Shown here piece by piece: positions 8,777-22,991 of a DNA stretch of 64,000 nt; the first letter of the stretch is position 1; each line of letters opens with the position of its first letter. The notes beneath the pieces were generated by a model, which saw only the letters and a program-made list of their open reading frames with translations, was not told where the DNA came from and searched no databases. Source of the stretch: Hungatella hathewayi WAL-18680. Lineage in GTDB: Bacteria > Bacillota > Clostridia > Lachnospirales > Lachnospiraceae. Where the stretch lies: positions 1,279,759-1,343,758 of the forward strand of contig NZ_JH379027.1 of NCBI RefSeq assembly GCF_000235505.1, written 5' to 3'. Position numbers and translations under genes: made by a program.

Positions 8777-9646
8777 ATGATGAATGTACGCAAAAATATG
8801 GGATTCTTGACGGAGGAACTGCTGGGGCAGTATGAGCGGTACTTGAAGGAGGAGGAGAGAAGCCGTGCTACGGTGGAGAAATATCTTCGGGATGTGAGAA
8901 AATTTAGGGATTATCTGGGGGCAGAGGGGGGAACGGAGTTTGATAAAGAGATGGTGCTGGAATATAAGCAGTATCTCAAGGAGCGTTATAGAACGACAAG
9001 CGCCAACTCTATGCTGGCAGCGGTGAACAGTTTTCTGGAGTACATAGGGCGTGGGGATTGTAAGGTGAAGCTGTTTAAAATCCAGCGGGCGCAGTTCAGT
9101 GAGAAAGAGAGGGAGCTGACAGAGAAGGATTATGAGAAACTGGTGCGGGCGGCACAGAGGAAGGGAGATATCCGGATGAGCATGCTGCTGCAAACCATTG
9201 GGAGTACGGGAATCCGAATCAGTGAGCTTCAGTTTGTCACCGTGGAAGCACTGAAGACGGGCCGGGCGGATATTTATAACAAGGGGAAATCCAGGATTGC
9301 GCTGCTGCCAGTGGAATTGGTGAGAGTGTTGAAGAAGTACTGCGGGAAAATGGGAATCAGAAGCGGAAGCATTTTCATCACAAGGAACGGGAAGCTGATG
9401 GACAGAAGCAATATCAATAAGAGGATGAAGCAGCTTGGAAGAGAGGCCGGGGTGGATGCGTCGAAGGTATTTCCCCATAATTTCCGCCACCTGTTTGCAA
9501 GAATTTTTTACAGCATCGAGAAAGACGTGGTGCGGTTGATGGATTTGCTGGGGCATTCCAGTATCAGTACGACCAGGATTTACACGATGGGCACGGAGGA
9601 ACAGCCAAGGAGGCAGATGTCGCGGATGCGGATGGTATTCGGTTAA
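8777..9646 (+). CDS. Tyrosine recombinase, likely DNA invertase of the adjacent switch
   Basis: A 289-residue phage-integrase-family protein: an N-terminal SAM-like core-binding domain (about residues 10-95) and a C-terminal catalytic domain with all key residues. These are Arg in GSTGIRISEL (near 146), Lys in NKGKSRI, His and Arg in HNFRHLF (near 233), His in LLGHSSIS and Tyr in TTRIYTMG (near 268). The ATG at 7777+1000, that is 8777, is favoured because AAGGGGG lies just upstream; ATG 8756 and 8780 are alternatives. It ends only 19 bp before a 21-bp inverted repeat whose partner lies 347 bp further on. No phage structural genes are near, so it is best read as the invertase for that segment, like other small phase-variation recombinases of gut Firmicutes. 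Confidence 0.88.
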   Translation: MMNVRKNMGFLTEELLGQYERYLKEEERSRATVEKYLRDVRKFRDYLGAEGGTEFDKEMVLEYKQYLKERYRTTSANSMLAAVNSFLEYIGRGDCKVKLFKIQRAQFSEKERELTEKDYEKLVRAAQRKGDIRMSMLLQTIGSTGIRISELQFVTVEALKTGRADIYNKGKSRIALLPVELVRVLKKYCGKMGIRSGSIFITRNGKLMDRSNINKRMKQLGREAGVDASKVFPHNFRHLFARIFYSIEKDVVRLMDLLGHSSISTTRIYTMGTEEQPRRQMSRMRMVFG

Positions 9647-9665
9647 CTTCCGGCAAATAAAAAAT

Positions 9666-9686
9666 ACCCCATAATAGGAATTATGT
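9666..9686 (+). repeat. Left inverted repeat of invertible segment
   Basis: A 21-bp sequence repeated perfectly in inverse orientation at 10034-10054. It has inner symmetry CATAAT-AGGA-ATTATG, and extended arms ACCCCATAAT and ATTATGTGGT that match 9 of 10, as expected for two recombinase monomers around a short asymmetric core. Confidence 0.9.
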
Positions 9687-10033
9687 GGTATCTATAACAA
9701 TCGTTTGAGGGATTTCTCCTTCATGATATAGTCTATTATACCCACTTTCGTAAAAATTGCAAGGATTGAACTGGAAAAAATTGCAAAATTTCACGAAGAG
9801 TTCGCAGAAATGTGAACTGAAAGGGTACGGATCCGGTGATTGGGCTTTTCGGGCTGAAATCGCCTGTTTGCCATGCGATAATCTTTTCGGGCAGGTTCCT
9901 GCATTCAAAAACAGTATTCCAAATAAGAAAAAATCATTCGAAAATATCGAAATATTCTTCATCCCCGGCTGAAAAACAGCCGGATTGTGCTCCGATAACC
10001 AGGCGGCCGGTTGCCGAAAACCGTTCCATCACT
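9687..10033. mobile_element. Invertible promoter segment (347 bp)
   Basis: The DNA between the two inverted repeats holds no convincing gene. It carries a leftward sigma-A promoter near its left end and a 7-bp hairpin (CCGGCTG/CAGCCGG, 9965-9983) near its right end. Inversion would bring the promoter next to the right repeat, reading into the surface operon at 10080. In this sequence the operon therefore seems to be OFF. The inversion is predicted, not shown. Confidence 0.8.
9735..9762 (-). promoter_or_regulatory. Outward promoter inside the invertible segment
   Basis: Minus strand: TTGCAA (9762-9757), 16-bp spacer, TATAAT (9740-9735). It now points left towards the 3' end of the recombinase gene. 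No rightward promoter of similar quality was seen in the segment. Confidence 0.65.
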
Positions 10034-10054
10034 ACATAATTCCTATTATGGGGT
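10034..10054 (-). repeat. Right inverted repeat of invertible segment
   Basis: Perfect 21-bp inverse copy of 9666-9686. It lies 25 bp upstream of the signal peptidase start codon. Confidence 0.9.
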
Positions 10055-10079
10055 CAATGCGAAAGAGAGGTGCCAATCC

Positions 10080-10883
10080 GTGGAAACGGCTGTGTTCAGA
10101 GGGAAATCCCGCAGACAGAAGCGGAAAGGGCAGGGGAAACGTGACAGAAAGATATCCCATTTCCGGACGGTGTGCTTTGGCGGTTTCGACGAAGCGCAGA
10201 TTATCTGCTGTCTGTGGGATATTGTGAAAGCCCTGGAGACGGGTCGGGAAGTGGAAAAAGAACCGGACACCGGACGGGCCACAGATACAGGGCAAAGCCG
10301 TGATGCAAAGAGGGAGCAGACCTCCGGCCTGGAAAAACAGCTGCGCAGGCAGATACGGGTGGAGATGCGGCGGTACTTTGTGCGAAAGAAGCGCAGAAAT
10401 GTGAGACTGCTGCTGGGCACGGCGCTGTGCGTGCTGTGTGCCGTTGGTCTCTTTGGCTTCCTCATAGGAATCGACCGGGTGTCCGGCAATTCCATGTATC
10501 CATATCTGAATCACGGGGACTGGATTGTGTACAGCCGGACAGGCGGTAGCTTTCAGCGGGATGAAGTTGTGGTATTTGAAAAAAACGGGGAAAACCTGGT
10601 GAAACGAATCGCCGGACTTCCCGGTGATACGGTGGAAATCAGTCCGTCCGGCGGCCGCGTGGTGGTAAATGGAATTCAGATTCGGGAAAACTATGTGACA
10701 TTGACGGACCAGACGGAAAAAGAGGACAGGATGGGGGCGCCGCAGACAGTGCTGGATGGGCAGTATCTGGTGCTGGGGGATAACCGGAGCGTGTCCATAG
10801 ACAGCCGTGACAGCGGCATGGGTACGGTGCCAGCCGCCAGCATACTCGGCAGGGTCGTCCTGATAGTCAGAACAAAGAATTGA
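10080..10883 (+). CDS. Signal peptidase I, first gene of the surface operon
   Basis: A 267-residue membrane protease of the S26 family with Ser-Lys chemistry. The catalytic Ser is in SGNSMYPYL and the Lys in NLVKRIAGLPGD; the C-terminal box is LGDNRSVSIDSRD. One membrane segment (LLGTALCVLCAVGLFGFLIG) precedes the Ser. The N-terminal cytoplasmic part, about 120 residues and rich in Arg and Lys, is much longer than in housekeeping enzymes. The frame is open back through the inverted repeat to TTG 10011, but flipping the segment would close it with a TAG just outside the repeat. GTG 10080, with AGAGAGG upstream, is therefore the most likely start. It probably matures the exported proteins encoded downstream. 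It is not the Ser-His SipW type. Confidence 0.85.
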   Translation: METAVFRGKSRRQKRKGQGKRDRKISHFRTVCFGGFDEAQIICCLWDIVKALETGREVEKEPDTGRATDTGQSRDAKREQTSGLEKQLRRQIRVEMRRYFVRKKRRNVRLLLGTALCVLCAVGLFGFLIGIDRVSGNSMYPYLNHGDWIVYSRTGGSFQRDEVVVFEKNGENLVKRIAGLPGDTVEISPSGGRVVVNGIQIRENYVTLTDQTEKEDRMGAPQTVLDGQYLVLGDNRSVSIDSRDSGMGTVPAASILGRVVLIVRTKN

Positions 10884-10915
10884 GATGAGAGATAAAGCGT
10901 GGGAGGTACTTGGAA

Positions 10916-13900
10916 ATGAGCCGTTTTATATTACATACAAAGACGAAGGGAAAGCAGAACTATCTGCTGCTGGGAATAGTCTGCATGCTGGTGGTAGCTG
11001 CGGCCGGCTACGGGCTGCACAGCATCGGGACAGCCCGTGCCAAAAGCCGGGAGGTGGTGCCCATTTACACACAGGAGGAACTGGAGCAGTATCTGCTGGA
11101 CCGGGAGAGCGAGGAGTACAACCTGAATGGGAAATACTGTCTGGAGGAAGATTTGGATATGAGCTGGCTGTACCAGTCCATAGGGACGAATCTGGAGCCG
11201 TTTACGGGCACCTTCGATGGAAACGGTCATGTGATGAGCGGCTTGAACAGACCGCTGTTCGGCGTGGTGGAGCGAGCTGAAATCAGAAATGTATTTCTGG
11301 GGGACGCGGTGATTGTGCACCCGTTTACTTATTCCGATGGGGAACATTATGTGGATGGGTACGGAGCGCTGGCGGCCTATGCGGTGAATGCATCCATGGA
11401 AAACTGCGGCATGAGCGGTGAGATTGCCATCGCCAGTCCATCCGAAGCAGAGTACCAAATGGCCAAGGCCAGCCCGGCGGATGAGGAGGAGAGAAAAGGG
11501 CCTGGGGAGATGGAAGCCGGGGAAATGCCGGTGGAGGGCGATAGTTCGTCAGAAGAGACAGAACAGGAGATTGGCCCTGGAATCGGGGAAAATGCCGATA
11601 GCTCCGTGGAATCGGGAGAAGTGGAGAGCGGCGCAGTGCAGGCAACGGAGACGGAGCAGGAGGAAACAGGAGAGAAAGGGACGGAGAACGGCGTGACCGG
11701 TGAAGAGTCCACCGGCGAAACCAGCGATTCCGGGATAAAGGAATCAAGTGCGGAAACGGAGAAGGAGACATCCGAAAATGTTGACGAGCCGAGTAAGCCA
11801 GTGGATTCCAGCCAGGAAACCAAAGCTCCAACTGATAATGAGACATCCGCAGATGCACCAGCCGACAGCACCGGCGGAGCAGGAAACAGTGATGCAGATA
11901 ACAGTGATGCAGGAAACAGTGACGCAGATAACAGTGTGAATGACACGGTGACTAATAATAGCGGAACAGGTAACAACACGGCGGGCAGTGGCGAACCAGA
12001 AGCAGATATCCCGGAGACGGTAGGTTACCGGGCCGCGCAGCGGCAGTATCTGATGATGAAGGTACCGGCCGTGGTGGATGCTGACATGGAATCAGCAGTG
12101 GTGGCAAGTCCTTCCGATGCTGATTTGGAAATAGATGGCCCGGGACAGGTGGGAGATAGCATGGACCAAGTAACGGGCAGCAGCGTGGCAGATGACACTG
12201 ACAATACGTACAGCCACGATTCCACCAACCATACAGCTTCCCAGGAAACAGGGAACATCGAAGAGACAGAAGAATACATAGGAAACCCGGATGGAGACAT
12301 CTACATACTGATCACGGCAGAGCGGATCACAGCGGGAGGTCTATCCGCTGAAATAGCCGGAGACACGCTTTTGACGGACTGCTTTGCCCTGGTGACCATC
12401 AGTTCCACCCAGGAAGAGATTGATACCTATACCGGAGGAATGACAGGAATCGTCGGGGGCGATTGCCGCATAGAGAACAGCTACGCCGCAGGGCTGGCAG
12501 ATACCTTTGGAGTAACCGGTGGATTTGCGGCGCTCCATGAAGGAATAATCCAAAACAGCTATTCCACCGTAACCATCGGTGAAAATGCCACAGCCTGTGG
12601 AGCTTTCACGGCGTCCGGCGGCGGAATTCTGACCGGCTGTGTCTATGACCGCCAGATATCCTGCACCCAGGAGACGGAAGAAACGGATACGACAGTGCCA
12701 AGTGAGGAAGCCCCTGGGGCCTCAGCGGATTTTGCACTGAAGGGCTTAAACACCACCCAAATGACAGGCCCCGAAGCCAGCATTCCCGGAACCTGGTACA
12801 AGGCGGAGCACGCCTATCCCCAGATTCCATATTTCGCCCAGAGTGAGCAGGAGCTGCTCTCCTCCAGTTCCAAAATATCGGCGGTTGCCCTGATACTTCC
12901 CGGCGGTTATACCCTGGCGGATGTCCTGCAAGCCGGTGATATCGTACTCCCGGCAGAGATAGACGGGCAGGAAATCTGGTGGGAGGCCCAGGGAGACATT
13001 GCAGTCAATGAATTTAACCAGGTAATCATAGGAGGGCAGGCAGAAACCGCCACCCCATCCATAGCCCAATATGAAGCGCCAAGAGTCCAAAGCGCATTAC
13101 AAGAAGTGGCCGAAACAGAGGTTATCAATTCCGGAAGCAATGCAGATTTCGACGATGATTCCAAAACGGCCACGGACACGGGTTTAGAGACAACCACCAC
13201 CAACCGCTTAAAAGCCTCCATAGGAAATACCAGCAGAAGTTTCGCCCTCCAGGCCATTGCTTCCGGAAATGGAGTCTATACCAGCTGGCTGGATGTAGGC
13301 GCGGCAGTCTCCGCCGGAACGTTGACGGACATAACAGCCCCACAGCTGGCAAATGGATGCTACGAAATAAATAATGCCGAGCAGCTGGCCTGGTTCGCCT
13401 ATCAGGTGAACCGGGGAACAGATACCTCCATACGGGAGGCCAATATCAAACTGACGGCTGACATTAACCTGGACGGAGCTGACCGCTACGGCGGAAGTAA
13501 AACTACCCCCCTCCCATGGATTCCCATAGGCACGGCTGACGGAAGCATTTACTTCAAGGGAACCTTCGATGGAAATGGTCATACCATTGATTACATGAAG
13601 GTATCCGGCCAGAATGGCCACTCCGGTTTCTTTGCGGCAGTAGGCGGCGGTGCTGTCATAAGAAGGCTTGGAATCGGCCCCCACAGTTCCGTGACAGCCA
13701 AAACGAATGGCAGCGCCTCCACAGGGGGAAATGCAGACGGAACCACAGATGGAACCGCGGCCCTGGCTGGGGGCATTATATCAGAATCTGGCAAAGACCA
13801 GGTCGTAATAGAAGGCTGTTACAACCGTGCTGCCGTAGCAGGAAAAAGCATCCATACAGGAGCCTTTATCGGAAACGGCAGCGTTTCCAACCCTGGAAAT

Positions 13901-16900
13901 CAGAGAATAACGAACTGCTACAATGCCGGACCCATCAGCATTGCGGAGGGAGGAACCGGAACGGCCAGTGGGATTGCGGGAACATTTTCCAACGATGTGG
14001 GCGCAGGCGGAGGGGGAATCAGGAACTGCTACTGGGTAGACAGTATCGACGGGATAGCCATCACCAGCGCTGCTTCCACCTCGGAAACGGAGGCCACCAT
14101 AGAAAAATCTAAAGCTGTCCCAGAGATGGAGATGAAAAAAGGAACCATGGTGGCTCTGCTCAACGAATCCGGCCCGGAGAACTTCTGGCGCTACTGCCCG
14201 TGGGAAAATGACAACGACGGCTACCCTCTCTTTTTCAGCGAGATATCCACCTACGATGACACCTGCACAGATTGGGGGATGGTTGGTGAGAAAATGGCGT
14301 TGGCCGGGATGACTTTGAATGGGGAAGGGACCGCAGACAGCCCCTATGAGCTTGGAACGGAGGAGGAACTGGCGTTATTTGCCTACCGTGTCAATCAGGG
14401 GGAGGTCAGTATCCATGCGAAGATGACGGCGAATCTGGATTTGTTTGGCTCCGGCTACACCAACAACATTTTCAATGAGGCATCGCCTAACATTGATGAG
14501 GCGCTTCCGTGGGCTCCAATTGGTAATGGGGTCGAATATACGGGAGTTTTTGATGGTGGCGGGTGTGTTGTTTCGAATTTAAAAATAGATGAATTAAATG
14601 TCGGAGACAGAGGATTTATAGGAGTCGTAGGTGCAAATGCAGTCGTAAAGAATATTGGAGTGGCATCCGGGATTGTACGTGGTGCTGCGCATACAGGAGG
14701 GGTTGTGGGATATGTAAATGCTGGAAATGTAAAAATCATTAACTGCTGGAATAATGCAGATATCTATTCAGAAGCGCAAAATATAGGAGGAGTAGTAGGC
14801 TGTAGTAACTACGCTGGCGGATTGTTAATTGAGTGGTGTTATAATCTGGGAAATGTAAGGCAGGCAAAGTTGGACAGCGCCGGAGGAATTATAGGAAAAC
14901 CACATTCAGGTGCGCAAACTATTAGAAATTGCTATAACGCAGGGACAATATATAGCCCTAAATATTCCGGTGGAATTGTAGGAGACAGACAAAATAACGC
15001 AAGTGTTTCCATCATAAATTGCTATAATCGCGGAGAGGTGACCGGGAGTGGGAAAAGTATCATGGGAAGTGGGAATTCCTGTACCGTGAGAAACTGTTAT
15101 TACGGCGGCGCCGCCTCCCAAAGTCAGGGCGGCTATGGGACTTACCTGCCGGACAGCGCCATGAAATCCTGGGCGCTGGCATTTGCCCTGAATGAAGAAA
15201 ATATGACAGCGGTAACGACCACCGTGGAAGGGGCCTCCTGGACAAACACAGCCCCCGGAACATCTTACCCTGCCTTTGGCCCTCTGCCATCGGCAAAAAC
15301 CTGGGATGTGGTGGGGCAGGGAGTGCTGGACGGATTGATTACAGGCCGTTTGACTGGCAGCGGCATTTCCGGCAGCCCCTATGAAATCGGAACGGATGCC
15401 CAACTGGCGGCATTTGCCCAGACCGTAAATGGTGGAACGAAAAAAGATGCGGAGGCCATCCTTAACAGCAGCTTGAACCTGCTTGGCGAGAAATACGGAG
15501 GAAGTGCGACAGCGCCTCTTCTGTGGAAACCCATCGGAACCACCGATAACGTCTATCAGGGAAATTTCGATGGAAACCAGAAAACAATCAGCCAGATGAA
15601 GGTAGAGCAGGAGGGGTACGCCGGCCTGTTCGGCTGTGCCGGAAGCGGGGCTTCCATAAAAAATCTGGGCCTGGACAACACATGCAGCATCGTTTCCACG
15701 GGAACCACAGGCGGGGATGGGACGGCCGCCTTTGTGGGAGTGGTAAAGAGCGATAACAATGCTTCCGTCAACCAGCTCACCGTCACCGGCTGTTACAACC
15801 GGGCGTCAGTCAGGGGAAATACAGGGAGCAGAACAGGTGCATTTGTGGGAGCCTATGAAGGAAATGACGGTGTAGGCGGCCAGAGAATTTCCAACTGCTA
15901 CACCACCGGCCCTCTCACGGCGGCAAGCGGAAAACCGGGAGCCATCGCCGGTTCCTTTACCAACAATACATCTGTGGCGACAGGCGGAATCCACTACTGC
16001 TACTGGGATGCGGCCACAAGCAGTGCCTCCGGAGTGACCCTGGCTGCGGTTTCCGGAAGCAATCCTGTGACAGTGGGAAGCACAACAAAAGCAATGTCCA
16101 CCTCTGATATGTCCACTGCAGCCGCGGAAACCGCAGGCGGACTGATTGAACAGTTGAATACAGATATGAGTTCGCCGGTGTGGACAAGAAAGAGCAGCCA
16201 TAATGACGGATATCCCATCTATACCAACAGCTTGTTCAGCGACAGCTGGGAGGAAATAGGTGCAGCTACAACGGCGCCATCCTATAAGAATACGGGCTCC
16301 GCGTCAACCGCAGGTACGAAGGACAATCCGTACTACATCCGGACTCCGGAGCAGCTGGCCTGGTTTGCTTATCAGGTGAATCAGAATAACAAAACCGGTC
16401 TGTGTGGGGAACTGAAAGCAGACATCAATCTGTTTGGTGGGTTATATACGGGAAATGCCTATCAGACGGGAACGGCGGAGCAGCTGTCCAAATCCCTCCC
16501 CTGGGTCCCCATTGGAAGCGGAGCGAAGCAGTATACGGGAACCTTCCAGGGCAACGCACATATTATTTCCAGAATGTTTGCAAAAGATGGAGAGAAGCTG
16601 GGGCTGTTCGGAACTCTGGGGGCCAGTGCCAGTATCTCGGACATTGCCATTTCGGATTCCCGTCTTGACGGTTCCGGCGCCGGATATCTGGGCGGTATCG
16701 CCGGATTTGCCGGTGGAAACAATGTCACCATCAATTTCTGCCGGAATGTAGGACTGCTTACCGGAAATGGAGAAAATTTCGGAGGCATATTAGGCGGAAG
16801 CGAAACGGCCAGCGGACTGGTACTGGAAGGCTGCTACAATGCGAAGGGCGCGGAGGTCACCGCCGATACCGGCACCGGCAGTGCGGTGGGAGGCATTCTT

Positions 16901-19189
16901 GGAAAGGGTTCCTCATCCCAGGAGGTAACCATCAGAAACTGTTACAACCAGGGAAAGGTCACCGGCGGCAGCAGCACCGGGGGAATCGCCGGAAATGCAA
17001 TTCCCGGCAAGACCAAGATTGCCGGCTGCTACAACGCGGGACCTGTGACTGCCGGCAACAGCGGACACGCAGGCTCTATCGCCGGCTCCGGGGACGTGGC
17101 TGGGGCTCTGATCAGCGGCTGTCTGATTGAGGATACTTACAGCTATGGCAGTGTCAACGGAGTCACGATAAAACAGGAGATATTCAAGACCTGGGGAGCC
17201 GCCTTCCGGCTGAACGGCAGCCAGTTAAACCAGTCCACCGGGCTGTCCTGGATCAATGTGGACGATGCTGCCGGCGCCATTTACCCGGTGCTGACCGATG
17301 GCGCTCTGGCGGCCGCAGAAAACTGGGAGACTCCGGCGAAAGCGGTGGAGGACGGTGTAATCGGGGAGAAACCGACAGGAACGCCGTATCAGATAAGCAC
17401 GGCGGAGCAGCTGGCCTGGTTTGCGAAGCAAATCAATGACGGAGCATTACCGGCCAATACGGGAGCTGTCTTGACGGACAACCTCGATCTTGCCGGAAGC
17501 AGCTATGTGGCCAGCGGAAAACTGGCCTGGGTGCCGATTGGAAAGGAGGCTTCCCGTGCTTATAAGGGGAAATTCCAGTCCAGTACCGGGAACTCAAAAC
17601 TGTATCAGATCCAAAACCTGTACGTGAATACCACCGGGGAAGCGGGGCTGTTCGGCGTCCTGGATACCGGGGCGGGCATCTCGGAAATTGGAATCGCAGG
17701 GGCATCGGTAACCGGGGAAACCGCCGGCGGCGTGGCCGGGCTTTTGAAGGGGAGCGCGGAGATATCCCGGTGTTATAACCGCGAAAACAGCGCCATAACC
17801 GGTACGGCCTGCGCGGGAGGAATCGCCGGCCAGCTGACGAACAGTGGGGCGGTCAAAGACTGCTACAACATGGAAACGATAATCAAATCCACCGGCTCGT
17901 CCTCCTATGCCGGAGGTATTGCCGGAAACGGAGGCGCTGGCTCCATTCGGAACTGTTACAATGCATGCCGTACAGGCGGGAGTATCGCCTCATCCGGTAC
18001 GGCGGCTTGTTCCATCGCCGGGGGCGGCTCAGGCAGCAGGGTGGTACAGTGCTTTAGTGATAAAACTCTGGCGGACAGCAGCTACGTGAAGGCGCTGGAC
18101 TGCTCCACTGACGCAAAGCTCCAGACGCAGACAGACAGCCTGAACACGGTGGACGAAACGGAGAAGAAGGGTACGGACCGAGCCTGGTTTACCAGTCTCA
18201 CCGCGGAAGCTGCCCACGGCCTGCCAACACTGGAAGCGCCCGTGATGCTGACCGTGACGCTGGACCCGTCGGCAGTGACAGAGGCAGGCGGAGTTTTGAC
18301 CGGAGCACAGGGAGTCTGGAGCGGCGGAACAACACCGCCGTCCAATCTGAAATTCCGGGGCATCCATCAGGAAAATGGAGGATCATCCCAGCCGGGACTT
18401 ACTCCGACAAAACTGTCGGATGTGGCCAGCGGTTATCGCATCTATGGAACAGACAATGCCCATGAGAAGCTGGCGCTGGAGGCAGGAGGAACTGATTTGT
18501 CTACGATTACCACGCCGTCGCTGACTGCTCCGGGGATAACACTGAGTAATGTGACTCCGTTAAAGTTGTACAACGGTGCTGCCTATACTTACCCGGATAA
18601 ACGGGTGGTTCTCATAGACCTGGCGGACACGTCGGGGGATACCGTCACCAGATATGAAATCAGGGCGGAGATAGCCGGCGTGACAAGAAATACGCTGGAT
18701 GTGACATTGCCCATAAAATCGGGAATCACGTTGAAGCCGGGAGTGGTGCCGGCAAAAGCGTATTCAGACGTGCCGCTGGAGATTGTCAACCGCGATTCCT
18801 GCCCGGTGGAGTTTGGCATCACCGAGGTGAAAGCACAGGATGTGTCGGCGGATATTGATGTGAAGCTGACTCCGGTTGCCAAGGAATTTACGATTCATGA
18901 TACCGTACCGATTACGGATGCGGCACAGGGAGTGAAGCTGGGCGTCAAGGGAACATTTCTGGCGGAAAACGGAAGTACATCGGAGCGGGAGATCTATTAT
19001 ACTCCCGGAAATACGCCATGGCTGTCCTGTAAGCTGGGATATGGGCAGACGCTTCACTTTGAATATTTCATGGAATACAGTCTTCTCCATGTGGGGCCGG
19101 AGCAGAAATTCGGATTTGATATCATTTACCGCTTCGGTATTCCAAAAGAGGATACGGGAAATGTAGTGGAGCAGGTGAGTGGAAGCTGA
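10916..19189 (+). CDS. Giant GLUG-repeat surface protein
   Basis: A 2757-residue exported protein. Residues 15-33 are hydrophobic (YLLLGIVCMLVVAAAGYG) and SIGTARA|K near 42 is a good signal peptidase I site. Residues about 180-450 are an acidic Ser/Thr/Asn-rich low-complexity stalk with NSDADNSDAGNSD repeats. At least five modules of 320-350 residues then follow, beginning near 817, 1145, 1490, 1806 and 2160. Each opens with a phrase like IxTAEQLAWFAYQVN, passes through LPWxPIG and GTFDGNGHTI, and carries many GLUG motifs (GGIAG..xIxNCYNxG). The end (about 2430-2757) looks Ig-like. There is no LPXTG motif and no C-terminal membrane segment, so attachment must be non-covalent or through the small partners. 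The ATG at 10916 has GGGAGG 9 bp upstream. GLUG proteins are mostly adhesin-like; the ligand is unknown. Confidence 0.85.
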   Translation: MSRFILHTKTKGKQNYLLLGIVCMLVVAAAGYGLHSIGTARAKSREVVPIYTQEELEQYLLDRESEEYNLNGKYCLEEDLDMSWLYQSIGTNLEPFTGTFDGNGHVMSGLNRPLFGVVERAEIRNVFLGDAVIVHPFTYSDGEHYVDGYGALAAYAVNASMENCGMSGEIAIASPSEAEYQMAKASPADEEERKGPGEMEAGEMPVEGDSSSEETEQEIGPGIGENADSSVESGEVESGAVQATETEQEETGEKGTENGVTGEESTGETSDSGIKESSAETEKETSENVDEPSKPVDSSQETKAPTDNETSADAPADSTGGAGNSDADNSDAGNSDADNSVNDTVTNNSGTGNNTAGSGEPEADIPETVGYRAAQRQYLMMKVPAVVDADMESAVVASPSDADLEIDGPGQVGDSMDQVTGSSVADDTDNTYSHDSTNHTASQETGNIEETEEYIGNPDGDIYILITAERITAGGLSAEIAGDTLLTDCFALVTISSTQEEIDTYTGGMTGIVGGDCRIENSYAAGLADTFGVTGGFAALHEGIIQNSYSTVTIGENATACGAFTASGGGILTGCVYDRQISCTQETEETDTTVPSEEAPGASADFALKGLNTTQMTGPEASIPGTWYKAEHAYPQIPYFAQSEQELLSSSSKISAVALILPGGYTLADVLQAGDIVLPAEIDGQEIWWEAQGDIAVNEFNQVIIGGQAETATPSIAQYEAPRVQSALQEVAETEVINSGSNADFDDDSKTATDTGLETTTTNRLKASIGNTSRSFALQAIASGNGVYTSWLDVGAAVSAGTLTDITAPQLANGCYEINNAEQLAWFAYQVNRGTDTSIREANIKLTADINLDGADRYGGSKTTPLPWIPIGTADGSIYFKGTFDGNGHTIDYMKVSGQNGHSGFFAAVGGGAVIRRLGIGPHSSVTAKTNGSASTGGNADGTTDGTAALAGGIISESGKDQVVIEGCYNRAAVAGKSIHTGAFIGNGSVSNPGNQRITNCYNAGPISIAEGGTGTASGIAGTFSNDVGAGGGGIRNCYWVDSIDGIAITSAASTSETEATIEKSKAVPEMEMKKGTMVALLNESGPENFWRYCPWENDNDGYPLFFSEISTYDDTCTDWGMVGEKMALAGMTLNGEGTADSPYELGTEEELALFAYRVNQGEVSIHAKMTANLDLFGSGYTNNIFNEASPNIDEALPWAPIGNGVEYTGVFDGGGCVVSNLKIDELNVGDRGFIGVVGANAVVKNIGVASGIVRGAAHTGGVVGYVNAGNVKIINCWNNADIYSEAQNIGGVVGCSNYAGGLLIEWCYNLGNVRQAKLDSAGGIIGKPHSGAQTIRNCYNAGTIYSPKYSGGIVGDRQNNASVSIINCYNRGEVTGSGKSIMGSGNSCTVRNCYYGGAASQSQGGYGTYLPDSAMKSWALAFALNEENMTAVTTTVEGASWTNTAPGTSYPAFGPLPSAKTWDVVGQGVLDGLITGRLTGSGISGSPYEIGTDAQLAAFAQTVNGGTKKDAEAILNSSLNLLGEKYGGSATAPLLWKPIGTTDNVYQGNFDGNQKTISQMKVEQEGYAGLFGCAGSGASIKNLGLDNTCSIVSTGTTGGDGTAAFVGVVKSDNNASVNQLTVTGCYNRASVRGNTGSRTGAFVGAYEGNDGVGGQRISNCYTTGPLTAASGKPGAIAGSFTNNTSVATGGIHYCYWDAATSSASGVTLAAVSGSNPVTVGSTTKAMSTSDMSTAAAETAGGLIEQLNTDMSSPVWTRKSSHNDGYPIYTNSLFSDSWEEIGAATTAPSYKNTGSASTAGTKDNPYYIRTPEQLAWFAYQVNQNNKTGLCGELKADINLFGGLYTGNAYQTGTAEQLSKSLPWVPIGSGAKQYTGTFQGNAHIISRMFAKDGEKLGLFGTLGASASISDIAISDSRLDGSGAGYLGGIAGFAGGNNVTINFCRNVGLLTGNGENFGGILGGSETASGLVLEGCYNAKGAEVTADTGTGSAVGGILGKGSSSQEVTIRNCYNQGKVTGGSSTGGIAGNAIPGKTKIAGCYNAGPVTAGNSGHAGSIAGSGDVAGALISGCLIEDTYSYGSVNGVTIKQEIFKTWGAAFRLNGSQLNQSTGLSWINVDDAAGAIYPVLTDGALAAAENWETPAKAVEDGVIGEKPTGTPYQISTAEQLAWFAKQINDGALPANTGAVLTDNLDLAGSSYVASGKLAWVPIGKEASRAYKGKFQSSTGNSKLYQIQNLYVNTTGEAGLFGVLDTGAGISEIGIAGASVTGETAGGVAGLLKGSAEISRCYNRENSAITGTACAGGIAGQLTNSGAVKDCYNMETIIKSTGSSSYAGGIAGNGGAGSIRNCYNACRTGGSIASSGTAACSIAGGGSGSRVVQCFSDKTLADSSYVKALDCSTDAKLQTQTDSLNTVDETEKKGTDRAWFTSLTAEAAHGLPTLEAPVMLTVTLDPSAVTEAGGVLTGAQGVWSGGTTPPSNLKFRGIHQENGGSSQPGLTPTKLSDVASGYRIYGTDNAHEKLALEAGGTDLSTITTPSLTAPGITLSNVTPLKLYNGAAYTYPDKRVVLIDLADTSGDTVTRYEIRAEIAGVTRNTLDVTLPIKSGITLKPGVVPAKAYSDVPLEIVNRDSCPVEFGITEVKAQDVSADIDVKLTPVAKEFTIHDTVPITDAAQGVKLGVKGTFLAENGSTSEREIYYTPGNTPWLSCKLGYGQTLHFEYFMEYSLLHVGPEQKFGFDIIYRFGIPKEDTGNVVEQVSGS

Positions 19190-19278
19190 GTGGAAATCCG
19201 GCCGGAGCCTGATTGAGGTATAGATGAAAAGCAGGCAGGGTAACAGATGGAGAGAACAGAGGGGAGACGGACAGACTG

Positions 19279-19878
19279 ATGGCAGGCGGACCCAAAACGG
19301 AGAGACCAATGGAAGACAGAGCAATCACAGAGAAAACCAATATGGAAAATTCCATACCGGAAAAGCAGGTGAAGGGGCGCCGGAAAAAAAGACAGAGATG
19401 GCCATTTTCCAACGGCGCGGCGGCAGTTATTCTGTGCCTGGGCGTGATCCTTCTGGGCTGTCTGGCCTATCTTTGCCTGGCAGACCCCATCCAGGCCAGG
19501 ATAGATATTCTACCGGATAAAAATGCCATGGATGGGCGGCTTCACGTCGACAGCCGGCCAGTGGAAGCCGGACAGTACCGGGTGGTATTGAACCAGCTGC
19601 CCACCATAAAATCAGGGAGCCGTGAGTGCAATATCGAGTTTGAAAACCCGGAGGGAAACCAATACAATTCCCGGATAAACCTCTATTTAACATCGGACGG
19701 AAAGCGGATTGGCGGCACCAGAAGGGTGGATACGGGAAAATATGTGGAAACCATCAAATTAAACCGCACCCTGGAACCTGGCGAGCATCAGGCGCTGGCA
19801 AAGATAGAACTGTTTATCGGAACAGAGCCTGCCGGCGAAATGATACTGGAAATCACATTGAGAGTTGTGGAAAAATAA
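19279..19878 (+). CDS. Membrane-anchored small surface subunit A
   Basis: A 199-residue protein with a basic cytoplasmic N-terminus, a membrane segment (about residues 46-68, GAAAVILCLGVILLGCLAYL) and a beta-rich outer domain of about 130 residues. The domain shows SRECNIEFENPEGN and LEPGEHQALAKI, echoing the IENP and PGxY motifs of the next two genes, so the three look like paralogues. Starts at 19279, 19309 (better SD, GGAGAG) and 19342 are all possible. It follows the giant protein gene by 89 bp. No family is recognised with certainty; it could be an anchor or subunit of the surface structure. Confidence 0.65.
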   Translation: MAGGPKTERPMEDRAITEKTNMENSIPEKQVKGRRKKRQRWPFSNGAAAVILCLGVILLGCLAYLCLADPIQARIDILPDKNAMDGRLHVDSRPVEAGQYRVVLNQLPTIKSGSRECNIEFENPEGNQYNSRINLYLTSDGKRIGGTRRVDTGKYVETIKLNRTLEPGEHQALAKIELFIGTEPAGEMILEITLRVVEK

Positions 19879-19932
19879 GGCGCAGAAATCAGCATAAGAG
19901 CGGCGATAAGAGAATCATAGGAGACGGGAAGG

Positions 19933-20457
19933 ATGCGGAGAAAAAGAAACTATGTGAATGCGGCAGTTGTAATCCTTGCCCTTGCATTTTGTGGGGTGGT
20001 ACTGGCGTGTGCGGGATACATTGTCCACACCCACAGCCAGCCGGTGGTGCAGTATCCCCAGCTGGAGCCGGAAGCCTATGTCCAGAGCGGGACTTTGAAC
20101 GACCCGGCAGGGAGACAGGCGGCGCTGGATGCGCTGGTGGCGGAGGGAATGCTGACTTTTTCCATCAATGCCACCCCGAGCATGGAAAACGGTAGCGGAA
20201 TGGCAAATCTGTTGATAGAAAATCCACCGGAGAACGGAAACCGTTTTACCGTGACCATTCTCCGGGAGGACACGGGAGAAACACTTTTCCAGTCCGGCTA
20301 TCTGGACCCGGAACAGTACATCGGGGAAGCTCCGCTGGATGTGGAACTGACGGCAGGAGTGTATGCCTGCGTGGCAAATTTTGACGCATACCGCATCAGT
20401 GACAACGCCTACATCGGAAGAGGGGCGGCGCGCATCACGCTGTATGTGAGAAACTGA
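19933..20457 (+). CDS. Membrane-anchored small surface subunit B
   Basis: A 174-residue protein with an N-terminal membrane segment (residues 8-30) and an outer domain. Distinctive phrases are EGMLTFSINATPSMENG, LLIENPPENGNRFTV, REDTGE, YLDPEQYI and ELTAGVYACVANFDAYR, with a final ITLYV strand. Almost every phrase recurs in the next protein, so a recent duplication is likely. The ATG at 19933 has GGGAAGG close upstream. Function unknown; position in the operon suggests a surface role. Confidence 0.7.
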   Translation: MRRKRNYVNAAVVILALAFCGVVLACAGYIVHTHSQPVVQYPQLEPEAYVQSGTLNDPAGRQAALDALVAEGMLTFSINATPSMENGSGMANLLIENPPENGNRFTVTILREDTGETLFQSGYLDPEQYIGEAPLDVELTAGVYACVANFDAYRISDNAYIGRGAARITLYVRN

Positions 20458-20498
20458 CGGGAAAACCGATATGAGGACAAAAGAAAGGGACAGGAAAC

Positions 20499-21140
20499 AT
20501 GAGCCGGGAGGAGAGGAAAGGAAAACAGGCGGTGTACAGGGAGAGCGGACGGGGGCGTGACAGGCCGGAGAGAGAGCCGACGGGAAATACCCGCCCAGGC
20601 AGAAAACAAGGCAGTGGGAGTGACAGAAGCAAAGGACTGCTGCTGGTGCTCAGCATTCTGTTTCTGGCCGCTTTGGTGGCGGCCATCTATTTCTACCGCC
20701 AGGGAAGGCAGAACACGCCGGAGCAGGCGGGACTGGTGTATGAGGCCAATATCATAGAGGGAGACATTCCTGGAAAATCCAGGGAGGACATCCAGCGGGA
20801 GCTGGACGAAATCGTGGAGGAGGGAATGCTGGCCATGTCCATCAACGCCACTCCGTCAGGGAAAACCACGGGGGAGAACAGAAACGTGAACTGGCTGATT
20901 GAAAACCCATCCAACCAGGGAAAATTAATCCGGGTGGAGGTCTTTAGGGATGACACAGGGGAGAAAATCTATGAAACCGGGGCCATTCCACCGGGTAACT
21001 ATGTGGAAGCCGCCCCGCTGAAGGTGGAACTGCCGCCGGGTCAATACACCTGTACGGCCAGGTTCCACGCCTACAAAGTAGAAGATGAAAGCTACATCGG
21101 CCAGGCTGCGGCCCAGATACGCCTGACCCTGTATGAGTGA
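20499..21140 (+). CDS. Membrane-anchored small surface subunit C
   Basis: A 213-residue paralogue of subunit B with a longer basic N-terminal tail (about 45 residues, many Arg and Gly), then a membrane segment (GLLLVLSILFLAALVAAIYF). The outer domain repeats the B pattern: EGMLAMSINATPSG, WLIENPSNQG, FRDDTGEKIYETGAIPPGNY, PPGQYTCTARFHAYK and YIGQAAAQIRLTLY. The SD is AGGAAAC before ATG 20499. The gene ends just before the next start region, so translation is probably coupled. Confidence 0.7.
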   Translation: MSREERKGKQAVYRESGRGRDRPEREPTGNTRPGRKQGSGSDRSKGLLLVLSILFLAALVAAIYFYRQGRQNTPEQAGLVYEANIIEGDIPGKSREDIQRELDEIVEEGMLAMSINATPSGKTTGENRNVNWLIENPSNQGKLIRVEVFRDDTGEKIYETGAIPPGNYVEAAPLKVELPPGQYTCTARFHAYKVEDESYIGQAAAQIRLTLYE

Positions 21141-21156
21141 GAGGAGGAAAACGGTC

Positions 21157-21864
21157 TTGAAAAAACGAACAGCAACATCAAAGGCGGCCGTTTTCCTGGC
21201 GGCCCTGGTGCTGATAGGGGGGCTGCAGCCACCGGGACAGGTCTTCGGCGCAGGAAGCGTGGGCGGAGAACGCCTGGAGGATGCCGAAGAGACGAGGGCG
21301 GAATTTCCCAGGGAGCAGGGAACTCAGGCGGTTCGGACAGAGCTGACGGGAAATATTGAGGTGTCGCTGATATCCGCAGCGCTGCCATCTGACGGATTTG
21401 AATTTCAGGTCAACCCGGCCTCACCCTTTGACGCGGTGGATAATCCCGGAGGACAGATTGTGTGTCCGGGACCGGAGAGCTTGAAGGTGACCAACCTTTC
21501 CGTGGTGTCTGTCCGGCTGGAGATTGCGTCTGTGGAGCAGATGAGAGAGGGAGATGTGACATTTGCGGAGCAATTCCCAGGAGGGCCAAAGCAGAGCTTT
21601 CAGCTGGTGGACCGGGTGTCGAAAGTAAATGGATTTGGAACGGCCCTTCTGGTGCTGGGAAGAGCGGACAAGCGGTATATCAGTGAGGCGGATTTTGAGC
21701 AGTATGCGCTGTACCCCGGAAGAACGGGGATTCCCATAACGGAGCTGGCGGCAGGCGAGAGTGTCGGCTTGCAGCTCTATGGAACAGCGGAAGCCGATTT
21801 TTATGGAGAATACCAGTTTACGGTGAGGCCAATCTTAAAAATCAGCGCAGTACGCGCCAAATAG
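21157..21864 (+). CDS. Secreted surface subunit D
   Basis: A 235-residue secreted protein with a cleavable signal peptide (AVFLAALVLIGGLQ..VFGAG) and a mature domain. The mature part resembles the next gene product: TELTGNIEVSLISAALPSDG against TELVGTIEITSLSVSLP, then a central SVVSVRLEI strand, and the ending YQFTVRPILKISAV against KFSVAPTFMVSTV. TTG at 21157 is preferred because AGGAGG lies 9 bp upstream; ATG 21133 overlaps the previous stop and has no SD. Together with subunit E it may form the main fibre or sheath subunit. No family name is certain. Confidence 0.68.
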   Translation: MKKRTATSKAAVFLAALVLIGGLQPPGQVFGAGSVGGERLEDAEETRAEFPREQGTQAVRTELTGNIEVSLISAALPSDGFEFQVNPASPFDAVDNPGGQIVCPGPESLKVTNLSVVSVRLEIASVEQMREGDVTFAEQFPGGPKQSFQLVDRVSKVNGFGTALLVLGRADKRYISEADFEQYALYPGRTGIPITELAAGESVGLQLYGTAEADFYGEYQFTVRPILKISAVRAK

Positions 21865-21913
21865 CGCGGCTGATTTAAATAAGAAGTAAGTAAAAAGGAT
21901 GGAGGAAAGAAAC

Positions 21914-22612
21914 ATGAGGAAGAGAGTAAGACAGACAGCCGCCCTAGCTCTGGCGCTGGGAATGGCAGTGACAGGAAGCATGGCAGGTTATGCGGCGGTG
22001 GACCCGGCGGCGGTGGAGACAGATACCGTATCCAGCGTAGGAGGAACGAAGACGGAGCTAGTGGGAACGATTGAGATTACCAGCTTGAGTGTCAGCCTTC
22101 CGTTAAAGGCCGGGTTTAACATTGACCCCAGTAAATATGATGGCAAAAGTATTGATGTACAGATTGGAAGCAACCAGTCGGCGAATTATAAGATTATCAA
22201 TAATTCGGCGGTGCCGGTGTATGTGTATATTTCGGACATCGAGGCCAATAAGGACCATACGGGCAGCAAGCCGGCCGGTGTGAAGGACATTTCCCTGATA
22301 AGCAAAACCGATAATATTTCAACACTGAACAGTGTCATGCTCGCCATCAAAGATGCTTCCATGACAACAGCTGACGGCCTGCCGGCAAATGCAGACGCGG
22401 ACGAGTCGTTCTGGCTGACTACAGCAAATATGACAACAAACAGTAACAAGTACTATTTGAACAATGCGAAGGGAAAAATGGAGGCAAAGACCGGAAGTAC
22501 CGGCACGGAACTGAATCTGAAGATATACGGCCTGACCCAGAACGGCTGGGCCCCGGCAGATAAATTTTCAGTGGCGCCCACCTTTATGGTATCAACCGTA
22601 GAGCCTTCATAG
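21914..22612 (+). CDS. Secreted surface subunit E, possible major subunit
   Basis: A 232-residue protein with a clear signal peptide (TAALALALGMAVTGSMAGYAA) and a Ser/Thr/Asn-rich beta-type mature domain. It starts at ATG 21914 with GGAGGAAAG upstream, the strongest SD among the small genes, which fits high output. It is a paralogue of subunit D. The composition (few aromatics, many Asn and Thr) is like that of pilin or S-layer-type subunits, but no sortase motif or pilin motif is seen. Function inferred from position only. Confidence 0.68.
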   Translation: MRKRVRQTAALALALGMAVTGSMAGYAAVDPAAVETDTVSSVGGTKTELVGTIEITSLSVSLPLKAGFNIDPSKYDGKSIDVQIGSNQSANYKIINNSAVPVYVYISDIEANKDHTGSKPAGVKDISLISKTDNISTLNSVMLAIKDASMTTADGLPANADADESFWLTTANMTTNSNKYYLNNAKGKMEAKTGSTGTELNLKIYGLTQNGWAPADKFSVAPTFMVSTVEPS

Positions 22613-22684
22613 AACTGAAAACGCGACAGAAGCAGCGTCACAGCCACCCAGTGAAATTCTGAAAAGAGACAGGAGGAAATACAT

Positions 22685-22879
22685 ATGGCAACAAGAATCC
22701 CATGCACCCCCTTTGGCAAAAAGATGAAAATCGCAATGGTAGAACAGGACATCCCCCAGCAGGAACTGGCCAAACGCCTCGGCATCGCCAATTCCACCGT
22801 CAGCGATATTATATATGGACGGAACCAGTGTGAGCGGACGAAGGAACGGATTGCGGAGACGCTGGGAATTAAAGGGTGA
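22685..22879 (+). CDS. Small Cro/C1-type HTH protein at operon end
   Basis: A 64-residue helix-turn-helix protein: GKKMKIAMVEQDIPQQELAK, then RLGIANSTVSDIIYGRN as the recognition region. It consists of almost nothing but the DNA-binding fold. CAGGAGG is 8 bp before the ATG. It is the last gene before the operon terminator and could be a feedback regulator of the surface operon or of the recombinase. Confidence 0.75.
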   Translation: MATRIPCTPFGKKMKIAMVEQDIPQQELAKRLGIANSTVSDIIYGRNQCERTKERIAETLGIKG

Positions 22880-22926
22880 TTTGATAAACGGGCTGTTGGA
22901 ATGACAGACTGTTAAAAAACAAGTTT

Positions 22927-22979
22927 ATCCAATAGAGTTTCTGTAAAAATTGTTTATGGAAATTCTATTGGATATTTTT
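22927..22979 (+). terminator. Terminator of the surface operon
   Basis: A 10-bp stem (ATCCAATAGA / TCTATTGGAT), which can be extended inwards, then ATTTTT. Confidence 0.75.
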
Positions 22980-22991
22980 ATGATTTTGGAA

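What the first reader, a model, noticed from the sequence alone, without database searches (positions are those of the whole stretch)
8777..22979. Phase-variable surface operon controlled by an invertible promoter, captured in the OFF orientation
Directly seen: a complete tyrosine recombinase gene, then 21-bp perfect inverted repeats (9666-9686, 10034-10054) around 347 bp, a good sigma-A promoter inside (TTGCAA-16-TATAAT) that faces away from the operon, and right after the second repeat an eight-gene operon (seven structural or processing genes plus an HTH gene) ending at a terminator. Known: gut Firmicutes and Bacteroides use recombinase-linked invertible promoters to switch surface structures. 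Inference: inversion turns on this set of signal peptidase, 2757-residue GLUG protein and small partners as one unit. I do not know a named system with this gene set.
Basis: partly seen in the sequence, partly recalled or inferred. Interest (0 to 1): 0.92.

Follow-up and report, generated by a model that had tools for sequence, protein, structure and literature searches.

The report
Thirty-five switchable surface-protein gene cassettes
A bacterium carries about 35 copies of one surface-protein gene cassette, nearly all with their own DNA-flipping enzyme and a promoter that can be turned toward or away from the genes, and in the sequenced genome all readable switches but one damaged copy point away.

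Summary
The window holds a tyrosine recombinase, a pair of inverted sites and a promoter facing away from an eight-gene operon. The same genome holds 34 copies of the operon's signal peptidase and 35 of its HTH protein, one of them alone. Thirty-two delimited cassettes take about 7.6% of the genome.

Thirty-five recombinase loci carry inverted site pairs. Their 4-nt centre is identical within each locus (35 of 35) but takes 21 forms between loci, the mark of site-specific recombination. The promoter faces away from the downstream gene(s) in 33 of 34 loci; the exception has a stop codon in its recombinase and drives a lone HTH gene.

New mechanistic point: in 34 of 34 switches the recombinase-side site is a hairpin followed by a T-tract, so it may terminate the OFF transcript; the operon side lacks the T-tract. 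The stem is A/T-rich and the terminator scan did not list it.

The product may be a secreted fibre; support is weak. The HTH is kept by purifying selection, hinting at control across cassettes. Inversion was not observed; no reads were available.

The parts
8777..9646 (+). tyrosine recombinase (proposed invertase of this switch)
   Evidence: PF00589 E 2.3e-25; R147, K171, H234, R237, H260, Y269 conserved in 35-37 of 37 aligned rows, the window's own gene being there twice; which residues are catalytic is recalled
9654..9665 (-). T-tract after the left recombination site, read in the direction of the OFF promoter
   Evidence: 9 T in the 12 nt after the site here; 34 of 34 loci have at least 7; 2.7% of random 12-mers do
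9666..9689 (.). left recombination site AC-N4-TAAT-AGGA-ATTA-N4-GT; on the minus strand also a terminator-like hairpin
   Evidence: not listed by the terminator scan
9690..10030 (.). invertible segment
9707..9722 (-). short hairpin in the 5' leader of the promoter's transcript, covarying between loci
   Evidence: 21 both-sides-changed cells versus shuffled mean 8.6, 0 of 500 shuffles as high; RNAalifold keeps 4 pairs at -2.1 kcal/mol
9735..9762 (-). promoter TTGCAA-16-TATAAT, facing the recombinase (OFF)
   Evidence: nearly invariant in 31 gap-free segments
9829..9875 (-). conserved imperfect dyad GGCGATTT...AATCACC upstream of the promoter
   Evidence: mixed: two of five measures do not exceed the shuffles
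10031..10054 (.). right recombination site, centre TCCT, inverted relative to the left site
10080..10883 (+). signal peptidase I with a conserved ~100-aa N-terminal extension
   Evidence: TIGR02227 E 4.1e-34; 34 strong copies in the genome
10916..19189 (+). 2757-aa protein with a hydrophobic N-terminus (by eye)
   Evidence: Peptidase_M26_N E 0.0022, below cut-off
19279..19878 (+). p4, small protein with an N-terminal hydrophobic stretch (by eye), family unknown
19933..20457 (+). p5, long N-terminal helix plus Ig-like beta-sandwich (model)
20499..21140 (+). p6, paralogue of p5
21133..21864 (+). p7, with signal-peptide-like start (by eye), related to p8
21899..22612 (+). p8, with signal-peptide-like start (by eye), fibre-subunit-like fold (weak match)
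22685..22879 (+). HTH_3 regulator, nearly identical in all cassettes
22926..22983 (+). operon terminator

Best explanation
This is one member of a family of about 35 phase-variable cassettes in one genome. A cassette's own tyrosine recombinase inverts a ~350-bp segment that carries the one conserved promoter of a secreted-protein operon, probably a fibre. The two sites of a locus share a 4-nt centre that differs from that of most other loci, so each segment flips within its own locus. In the OFF orientation the promoter fires toward the recombinase gene, but its transcript probably stops early, because the recombinase-side site folds into a hairpin followed by a T-tract. In the ON orientation the same transcript passes the other site, which has no T-tract, and enters the operon. 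Shown by sequence: cassettes, site pairs, matching centres, promoter direction, hairpin/T-tract asymmetry. Inferred: inversion in cells, termination, ON transcription, fibre assembly on the surface.
For: 46 Phage_integrase matches; 34 signal peptidases, 35 HTH copies at 89% identity or more (one of them the lone L011 copy) and 35 p7 (one partial) in the genome. Site centres identical within locus 35 of 35; 21 distinct centres; permutation mean 2.37, maximum 12 in 100,000. The N4 arm positions on either side of the core agree between left and right in only 26-86% of loci, so identity is concentrated on the crossover. Promoter near-invariant; 33 of 34 face away, 561 pairwise comparisons without conflict. 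All 32 places found by the promoter pattern alone lie beside a recombinase. T-tract after the left site in 34 of 34, mean 9.35 T of 12, against 0.74 after the right site. The OFF exit hairpin is more stable than the predicted ON exit hairpin in 32 of 34 and equal in 2, means -8.39 and -2.07 kcal/mol. Catalytic residues conserved.
Against: No locus with an operon was seen ON, and no second genome with this promoter was found (1 of 397 family genomes), so both orientations of one locus were never compared. The terminator reading is weaker than a textbook case: the stem has about three G-C pairs and usually one mismatch (9 of 10 pairs in most loci), and the scan for terminator-like sites did not list it. 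The paper on cwpV uses a rule of at least four G-C pairs. In the window copy and in L012 the two exit hairpins are equally stable, so only the T-tract separates ON from OFF there. The T-tract could also serve DNA bending or protein binding; this was not tested. Three 9-of-12 promoter-like sites face the operon now. The fibre assignment rests on a model with mean pLDDT 78 and Foldseek E 0.027 at best, and no sequence match to solved chains.
Confidence: 0.8

Rival explanations
1. The switch families are relics: the recombinases no longer act and the loci are frozen OFF.
For: 33 of 34 readable switches lie in one orientation; one recombinase has a TAG and another is split into two ORFs (L042); five p7 copies carry a TAA.
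Against: Catalytic residues are intact in 35-37 of 37 rows; centres are identical within locus at 35 of 35 while differing between loci, which suggests continued exchange; the promoter is nearly invariant; 34 of 34 strong sip and 30 of 35 p7 matches hold no stop.
Confidence: 0.08
2. The recombinase is a mobile-element integrase and the repeats are attachment sites; the cassettes spread as elements rather than switch.
For: Many dispersed copies; 46 integrase-domain matches.
Against: Sites are inverted, not direct, and lie on one side of the recombinase, 303-385 nt apart (core to core) at 31 of 35 loci, around a conserved promoter; no excision gene was among the family matches of ten window proteins.
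Confidence: 0.04
3. One or a few recombinases act on many switches in trans, so the linked gene is not the specific invertase.
For: Site arms are much the same at all loci; the recombinases compared are 72% identical on average; C. difficile RecV is needed for several but not all switches (PMC5903667, passages).
Against: All 32 promoter places found without reference to a recombinase have a recombinase gene beside them.
Confidence: 0.3

Closest known systems
Bacteroides fragilis capsule loci with invertible promoters (PMC3090145, passages)
   Same: Several surface operons in one genome, each behind an invertible promoter; a switch caught OFF in genome sequences; regulator genes at the operons.
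   Different: There one invertase (FinA) drives the promoters of seven loci and the products are polysaccharides. Here about 35 loci have a linked recombinase and the products are proteins.
C. difficile cwpV switch (PMC2784873, passages)
   Same: Site-specific recombinase; a proposed intrinsic terminator at the inverted repeat in the OFF orientation only.
   Different: The cwpV promoter lies outside the inverted DNA and the terminator silences the gene. Here the promoter inverts and the hairpin would cap it on the recombinase side.
E. coli fim switch (recalled; the fimE terminator is mentioned in PMC2784873, passages)
   Same: A promoter inside an invertible ~300-bp segment drives fibre subunit genes beside recombinase genes; a terminator depends on phase.
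   Different: One locus; Rho-dependent terminator of fimE; chaperone-usher pilus of a Gram-negative.
TasA fibre operon of Bacillus (recalled; TasA fibre 8aur found)
   Same: A signal peptidase gene beside small secreted proteins, one with a weak fold match.
   Different: The signal peptidase here matches the bacterial type I model over its cut-off, not the archaeal/ER-type to which SipW belongs (recalled); no sequence match.

Membership tests
Invertible promoter switch run by a tyrosine recombinase | Linked tyrosine recombinase with intact catalytic residues | tested here: met
Invertible promoter switch run by a tyrosine recombinase | Inverted recombination sites with identical crossover region | tested here: met
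   4-nt centre 35 of 35, whole 12-nt core 31 of 35
Invertible promoter switch run by a tyrosine recombinase | Promoter inside the invertible segment that can face the operon | tested here: met
   the facing orientation was seen only at L011, before a lone HTH gene
Invertible promoter switch run by a tyrosine recombinase | Both orientations occur at the same locus | not testable with these tools
   no reads; no other genome with this promoter among 397
cwpV-type terminator switch | OFF-specific intrinsic terminator using the inverted repeat | tested here: inconclusive
   hairpin plus T-tract in 34 of 34, but the terminator scan did not list it and it falls short of the four G-C pairs cited; termination not measured
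cwpV-type terminator switch | Promoter outside the invertible DNA | tested here: not met
   the conserved promoter is inside
TasA/SipW fibre system | TasA-like donor-strand fold of the secreted subunit | tested here: inconclusive
   8aur Foldseek E 0.027; VIA Z 4.9, rmsd 6.2, 143 aligned; no match at E <= 0.001
TasA/SipW fibre system | ER-type signal peptidase SipW (recalled) | tested here: not met
   TIGR02227 bacterial type 4.1e-34, over its cut-off; TIGR02228 archaeal type 5e-5, under its cut-off
GLUG-motif proteins | Pfam GLUG motif match | tested here: inconclusive
   no GLUG match in 3 of 3 giant proteins at E up to 10, but HMMER filters drop most weak matches of so short a motif

The most novel reading that the evidence does not exclude
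The cassettes form one coordinated choice system, like antigen repertoires with a single active member. The HTH at the end of each cassette is kept almost identical by selection and acts in trans on the shared elements of all switches, so that the state of one cassette (or of the lone HTH at L011, whose switch seems locked ON) holds the others OFF. Each recombinase-side recombination site also serves as a transcription terminator that shields the recombinase gene from the OFF promoter.
Probability: 0.22. Interest if true: 0.93.

Novelty: new variant of a known kind. Interest (0 to 1): 0.82.

Why it matters
In the B. fragilis and C. difficile examples one invertase serves several switches (passages). 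Here a single genome spends about 7.6% of its length (32 cassettes) on some 35 switches with their own recombinases, mostly locus-specific crossover codes and strongly diversified secreted products. That makes it a natural test bed for how many near-identical recombination sites coexist in one chromosome without rearranging it, whether recombination sites gain a second role as terminators, and whether a bacterium can choose one surface type out of dozens. None of p4-p8 in the window matches a Pfam family over its cut-off.

Tried and rejected
Three-site loci: L010, L032, L018 and L038 seemed to carry a third recombination site; each extra copy sits across an N-run from a 98-100% identical stretch, so I take these for assembly artefacts. 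L015 and L016 have the same kind of gap (97% and 93%).

GLUG naming: not confirmed. Defence system: no PADLOC match at E up to 0.01 for seven of eight window proteins; the HTH matched four models, the best at 3.3e-6.

HTH operator: the dyad at 9829-9875 was considered. Three of five measures exceed all 500 shuffles; pairs with a change on both sides (4) were reached by 110 of 500, and further pair types were 6 against a shuffled mean of 8.8; the third pair is unpaired in 18 of 28 sequences. Its role is not assigned.

Finding the other orientation elsewhere: the genome-contig scan with the recombinase gave one distant hit, and the tool warns that the window's own records may be left out; viral-contig scans with the promoter, p7 and HTH gave none. 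The organism's name was not obtained.

Rows dropped: of 44 recombinase-like ORFs, four under 100 bits were left out. Of the 40 left, five were not used for site pairs: L017 (right site not readable, N-run), L018 at 1122 (copy beside a gap), L036 and L043 (no site pair), L042 at 7058 (5' part of a split gene). I picked the 35 pairs by hand from the listing. L013 was left out of the orientation count because its segment is unrelated. One search leaves out L013 and segments with N (31 rows). For one search, seven leaders identical to others and L015 (N-run) were left out (26 used); for, 29 distinct rows. One search used bit-score thresholds that drop the most distant copies, and dropped one of 19 HTH copies because it begins MANRI, not MATRI.

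Literature: ten searches listed no paper that I recognised as describing this gene set; subscription papers and preprints are not covered. Four papers were seen as passages only.
Full report
What was checked. The recombinase gene is at 8777-9646. The inverted repeats are 21 nt perfect around 347 nt (24 nt at 96% when extended). The minus-strand promoter is TTGCAA-16-TATAAT. The eight-gene operon ends at a stem-loop with a T-run. The recombinase matches Phage_integrase and keeps the residues recalled as catalytic. The first operon gene is a bacterial-type signal peptidase I (TIGR02227). The 2757-aa protein gave no GLUG match; its only Pfam match is the M26 N-terminal region below the cut-off. 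p4 to p7 match no Pfam family at E up to 0.1 and p8 only one below its cut-off.

One of about 35. The window's genome (5.70 Mb in 17 contigs) has 46 matches to the integrase family. Fetching the surroundings showed the same gene order again and again: recombinase, switch, signal peptidase, giant protein, p4, p5, p6, p7, p8, HTH. Genome-wide there are 34 strong signal peptidase copies, 35 p7 copies (one partial) and 35 HTH copies at 89% identity or more, including a lone one at L011, plus two HTH copies at 71-75%. Not every cassette has all parts in view: for a second cassette on contig C3 (signal peptidase at 126732) no recombinase match was listed. Several lie in tandem.

Site anatomy. Thirty-five recombinase loci have inverted sites close to AC-N4-TAAT-NNNN-ATTA-N4-GT, with 303-385 nt between cores in 31 of 35; the others are L013 (217) and three with N-runs. 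The 4-nt centre agrees within the locus in 35 of 35, the whole 12-nt core in 31 of 35, and the centre takes 21 different forms across loci. Shuffling right-hand centres among loci gives a mean of 2.37 agreements and a maximum of 12 in 100,000 trials. The N4 arm positions agree in 26-86%. This is what repeated strand exchange between the two sites of a locus would leave. It also suggests why about 70 similar sites can coexist in one chromosome: unlike centres should not recombine (general knowledge of tyrosine recombinases). Some centres are shared by up to five loci, so the insulation is not complete.

Promoter and state. In 34 loci whose segments align, all 561 pairwise comparisons give a consistent orientation: 33 promoters face the recombinase and one, at L011, faces away from it. 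The promoter block is nearly invariant across 31 gap-free segments, and all 32 places found with the promoter pattern lie beside a recombinase. The signal peptidase ORF starts a median of 24 nt after the right site core in 33 loci; outliers come from longest-ORF starts upstream of the site (8) and N-gaps (3). L011 has a TAG in its recombinase and its promoter points at a lone HTH gene. So no operon was caught ON. The draft assembly, with N-runs in several switches, gives one state per locus and says nothing about minority states. In the window three weaker promoter-like sites face the operon now; the scan's total is not far from its shuffles.

A recombination site that may also be a terminator. 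Read in the direction of the OFF promoter, the left site is a hairpin (-4.8 to -9.8 kcal/mol) followed by a T-tract: 34 of 34 loci have at least 7 T in the next 12 nt (mean 9.35), where 2.7% of random 12-mers do. After the right site there are 0-2 T (mean 0.74) and a purine-rich stretch before the signal peptidase. Joining the half-sites in silico as inversion would, the ON exit hairpin is weaker than the OFF one in 32 of 34 and equal in two, the window copy being one of the two. Against this reading: the stem is A/T-rich, usually with one mismatch, and the terminator scan of the window did not list it. If it works, the OFF transcript ends before it runs antisense through the recombinase, while the ON transcript is not stopped. 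The 5' leader also holds a short hairpin with compensatory changes (21 both-sides-changed cells, shuffled mean 8.6, 0 of 500 shuffles as high), though its consensus energy is only -2.1 kcal/mol. A further dyad upstream of the promoter shows mixed evidence.

What the operon may make. p7 and p8 have signal-peptide-like starts (by eye) and are related to each other. The p8 model (mean pLDDT 78) has the TasA fibre as its first Foldseek match at E 0.027, and the first nine rows are fibre, pilus or filament subunits; lower rows are mixed. VIA-align gives Z 6.6 and 6.2 to archaeal filaments and 4.9 to TasA. All are below the level at which a match can be trusted alone. p5 models as a long helix plus an Ig-like domain with unspecific matches. 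A phase-variable fibre is therefore an inference. The SipW link is not met: the peptidase is of the bacterial type.

Selection. Mean pairwise protein identity is 0.72 for the recombinase, 0.62 and 0.61 for p5 and p6, 0.60 for the signal peptidase, 0.49 for p7, 0.48 for p4 and 0.37 for p8, while the HTH stays at 0.96 although its third codon positions agree only to 0.67 (copies inside the fetched stretches above bit-score thresholds, 18 for the HTH). The HTH is thus held by purifying selection and not by recent copying, which suggests a common target in all cassettes. A lone HTH behind an ON promoter at L011 fits a trans-acting role but may equally be a decayed cassette.

Distribution. The promoter pattern was found only in this genome, among 397 genomes of the family and among the 41 of an earlier search of relatives. 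p5-like proteins occur in 41 of 299 genomes, this one included, with 1-5 matches in the other 40 (at most ten candidates per genome scored). p7 was found in 4 of 397, this one included, the other three with one weak match each (at most seven scored). In 16 fetched stretches from relatives only two weak recombinase matches (16 and 34 bits) and one signal peptidase match were found near them. The cassette amplification appears specific to this lineage within what was searched.

Compared with known systems. B. fragilis uses one invertase for seven capsule promoters (PMC3090145, passages). C. difficile RecV serves several switches (PMC5903667, passages), and cwpV has an OFF-specific proposed terminator at its repeat but a fixed promoter (PMC2784873, passages). 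A community survey reports a median of 3 invertons for Clostridia-like genomes, with a maximum of 181 in Mitsuokella multacida (PMC11892184, passages); so large numbers of invertons are not new, but this repeated cassette with its own recombinase was not found in ten searches. I rate it a new variant of a known kind.

Noticed in passing
L011:8663-10183: The only switch in the ON orientation: recombinase with an in-frame TAG, promoter pointing at a solitary HTH gene.
   Followed up: partly
L110:8041-10741: A 617-aa surface-like protein, a protein that looks p8-like by eye and a 75%-identical HTH stand together, with no recombinase that I recognised among the ORFs listed around them; perhaps the ancestral arrangement.
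   Followed up: partly
L013:11100-11969 and the repeats beside it: A related recombinase with 29-nt perfect inverted repeats only 195 nt apart and an unrelated segment: probably a different switch.
   Followed up: partly
window:10080-10380: The signal peptidases share a conserved N-terminal extension of about 100 aa of unknown role.
   Followed up: no
window:23219-24130: A gene with a weak, below-cut-off match to the Rpn nuclease family follows the cassette; three relatives of it were found in the fetched loci.
   Followed up: no
L042:7058-8210: Recombinase gene split into two overlapping ORFs although its switch is kept, with one base off in the right core, and faces OFF.
   Followed up: no
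C2:26071-26703, C1:977310-977936, C1:993302-993925, C1:3404144-3404773 of G000: Four near-full-length p7 copies (and one partial copy at C1:3088064) carry a TAA inside.
   Followed up: no
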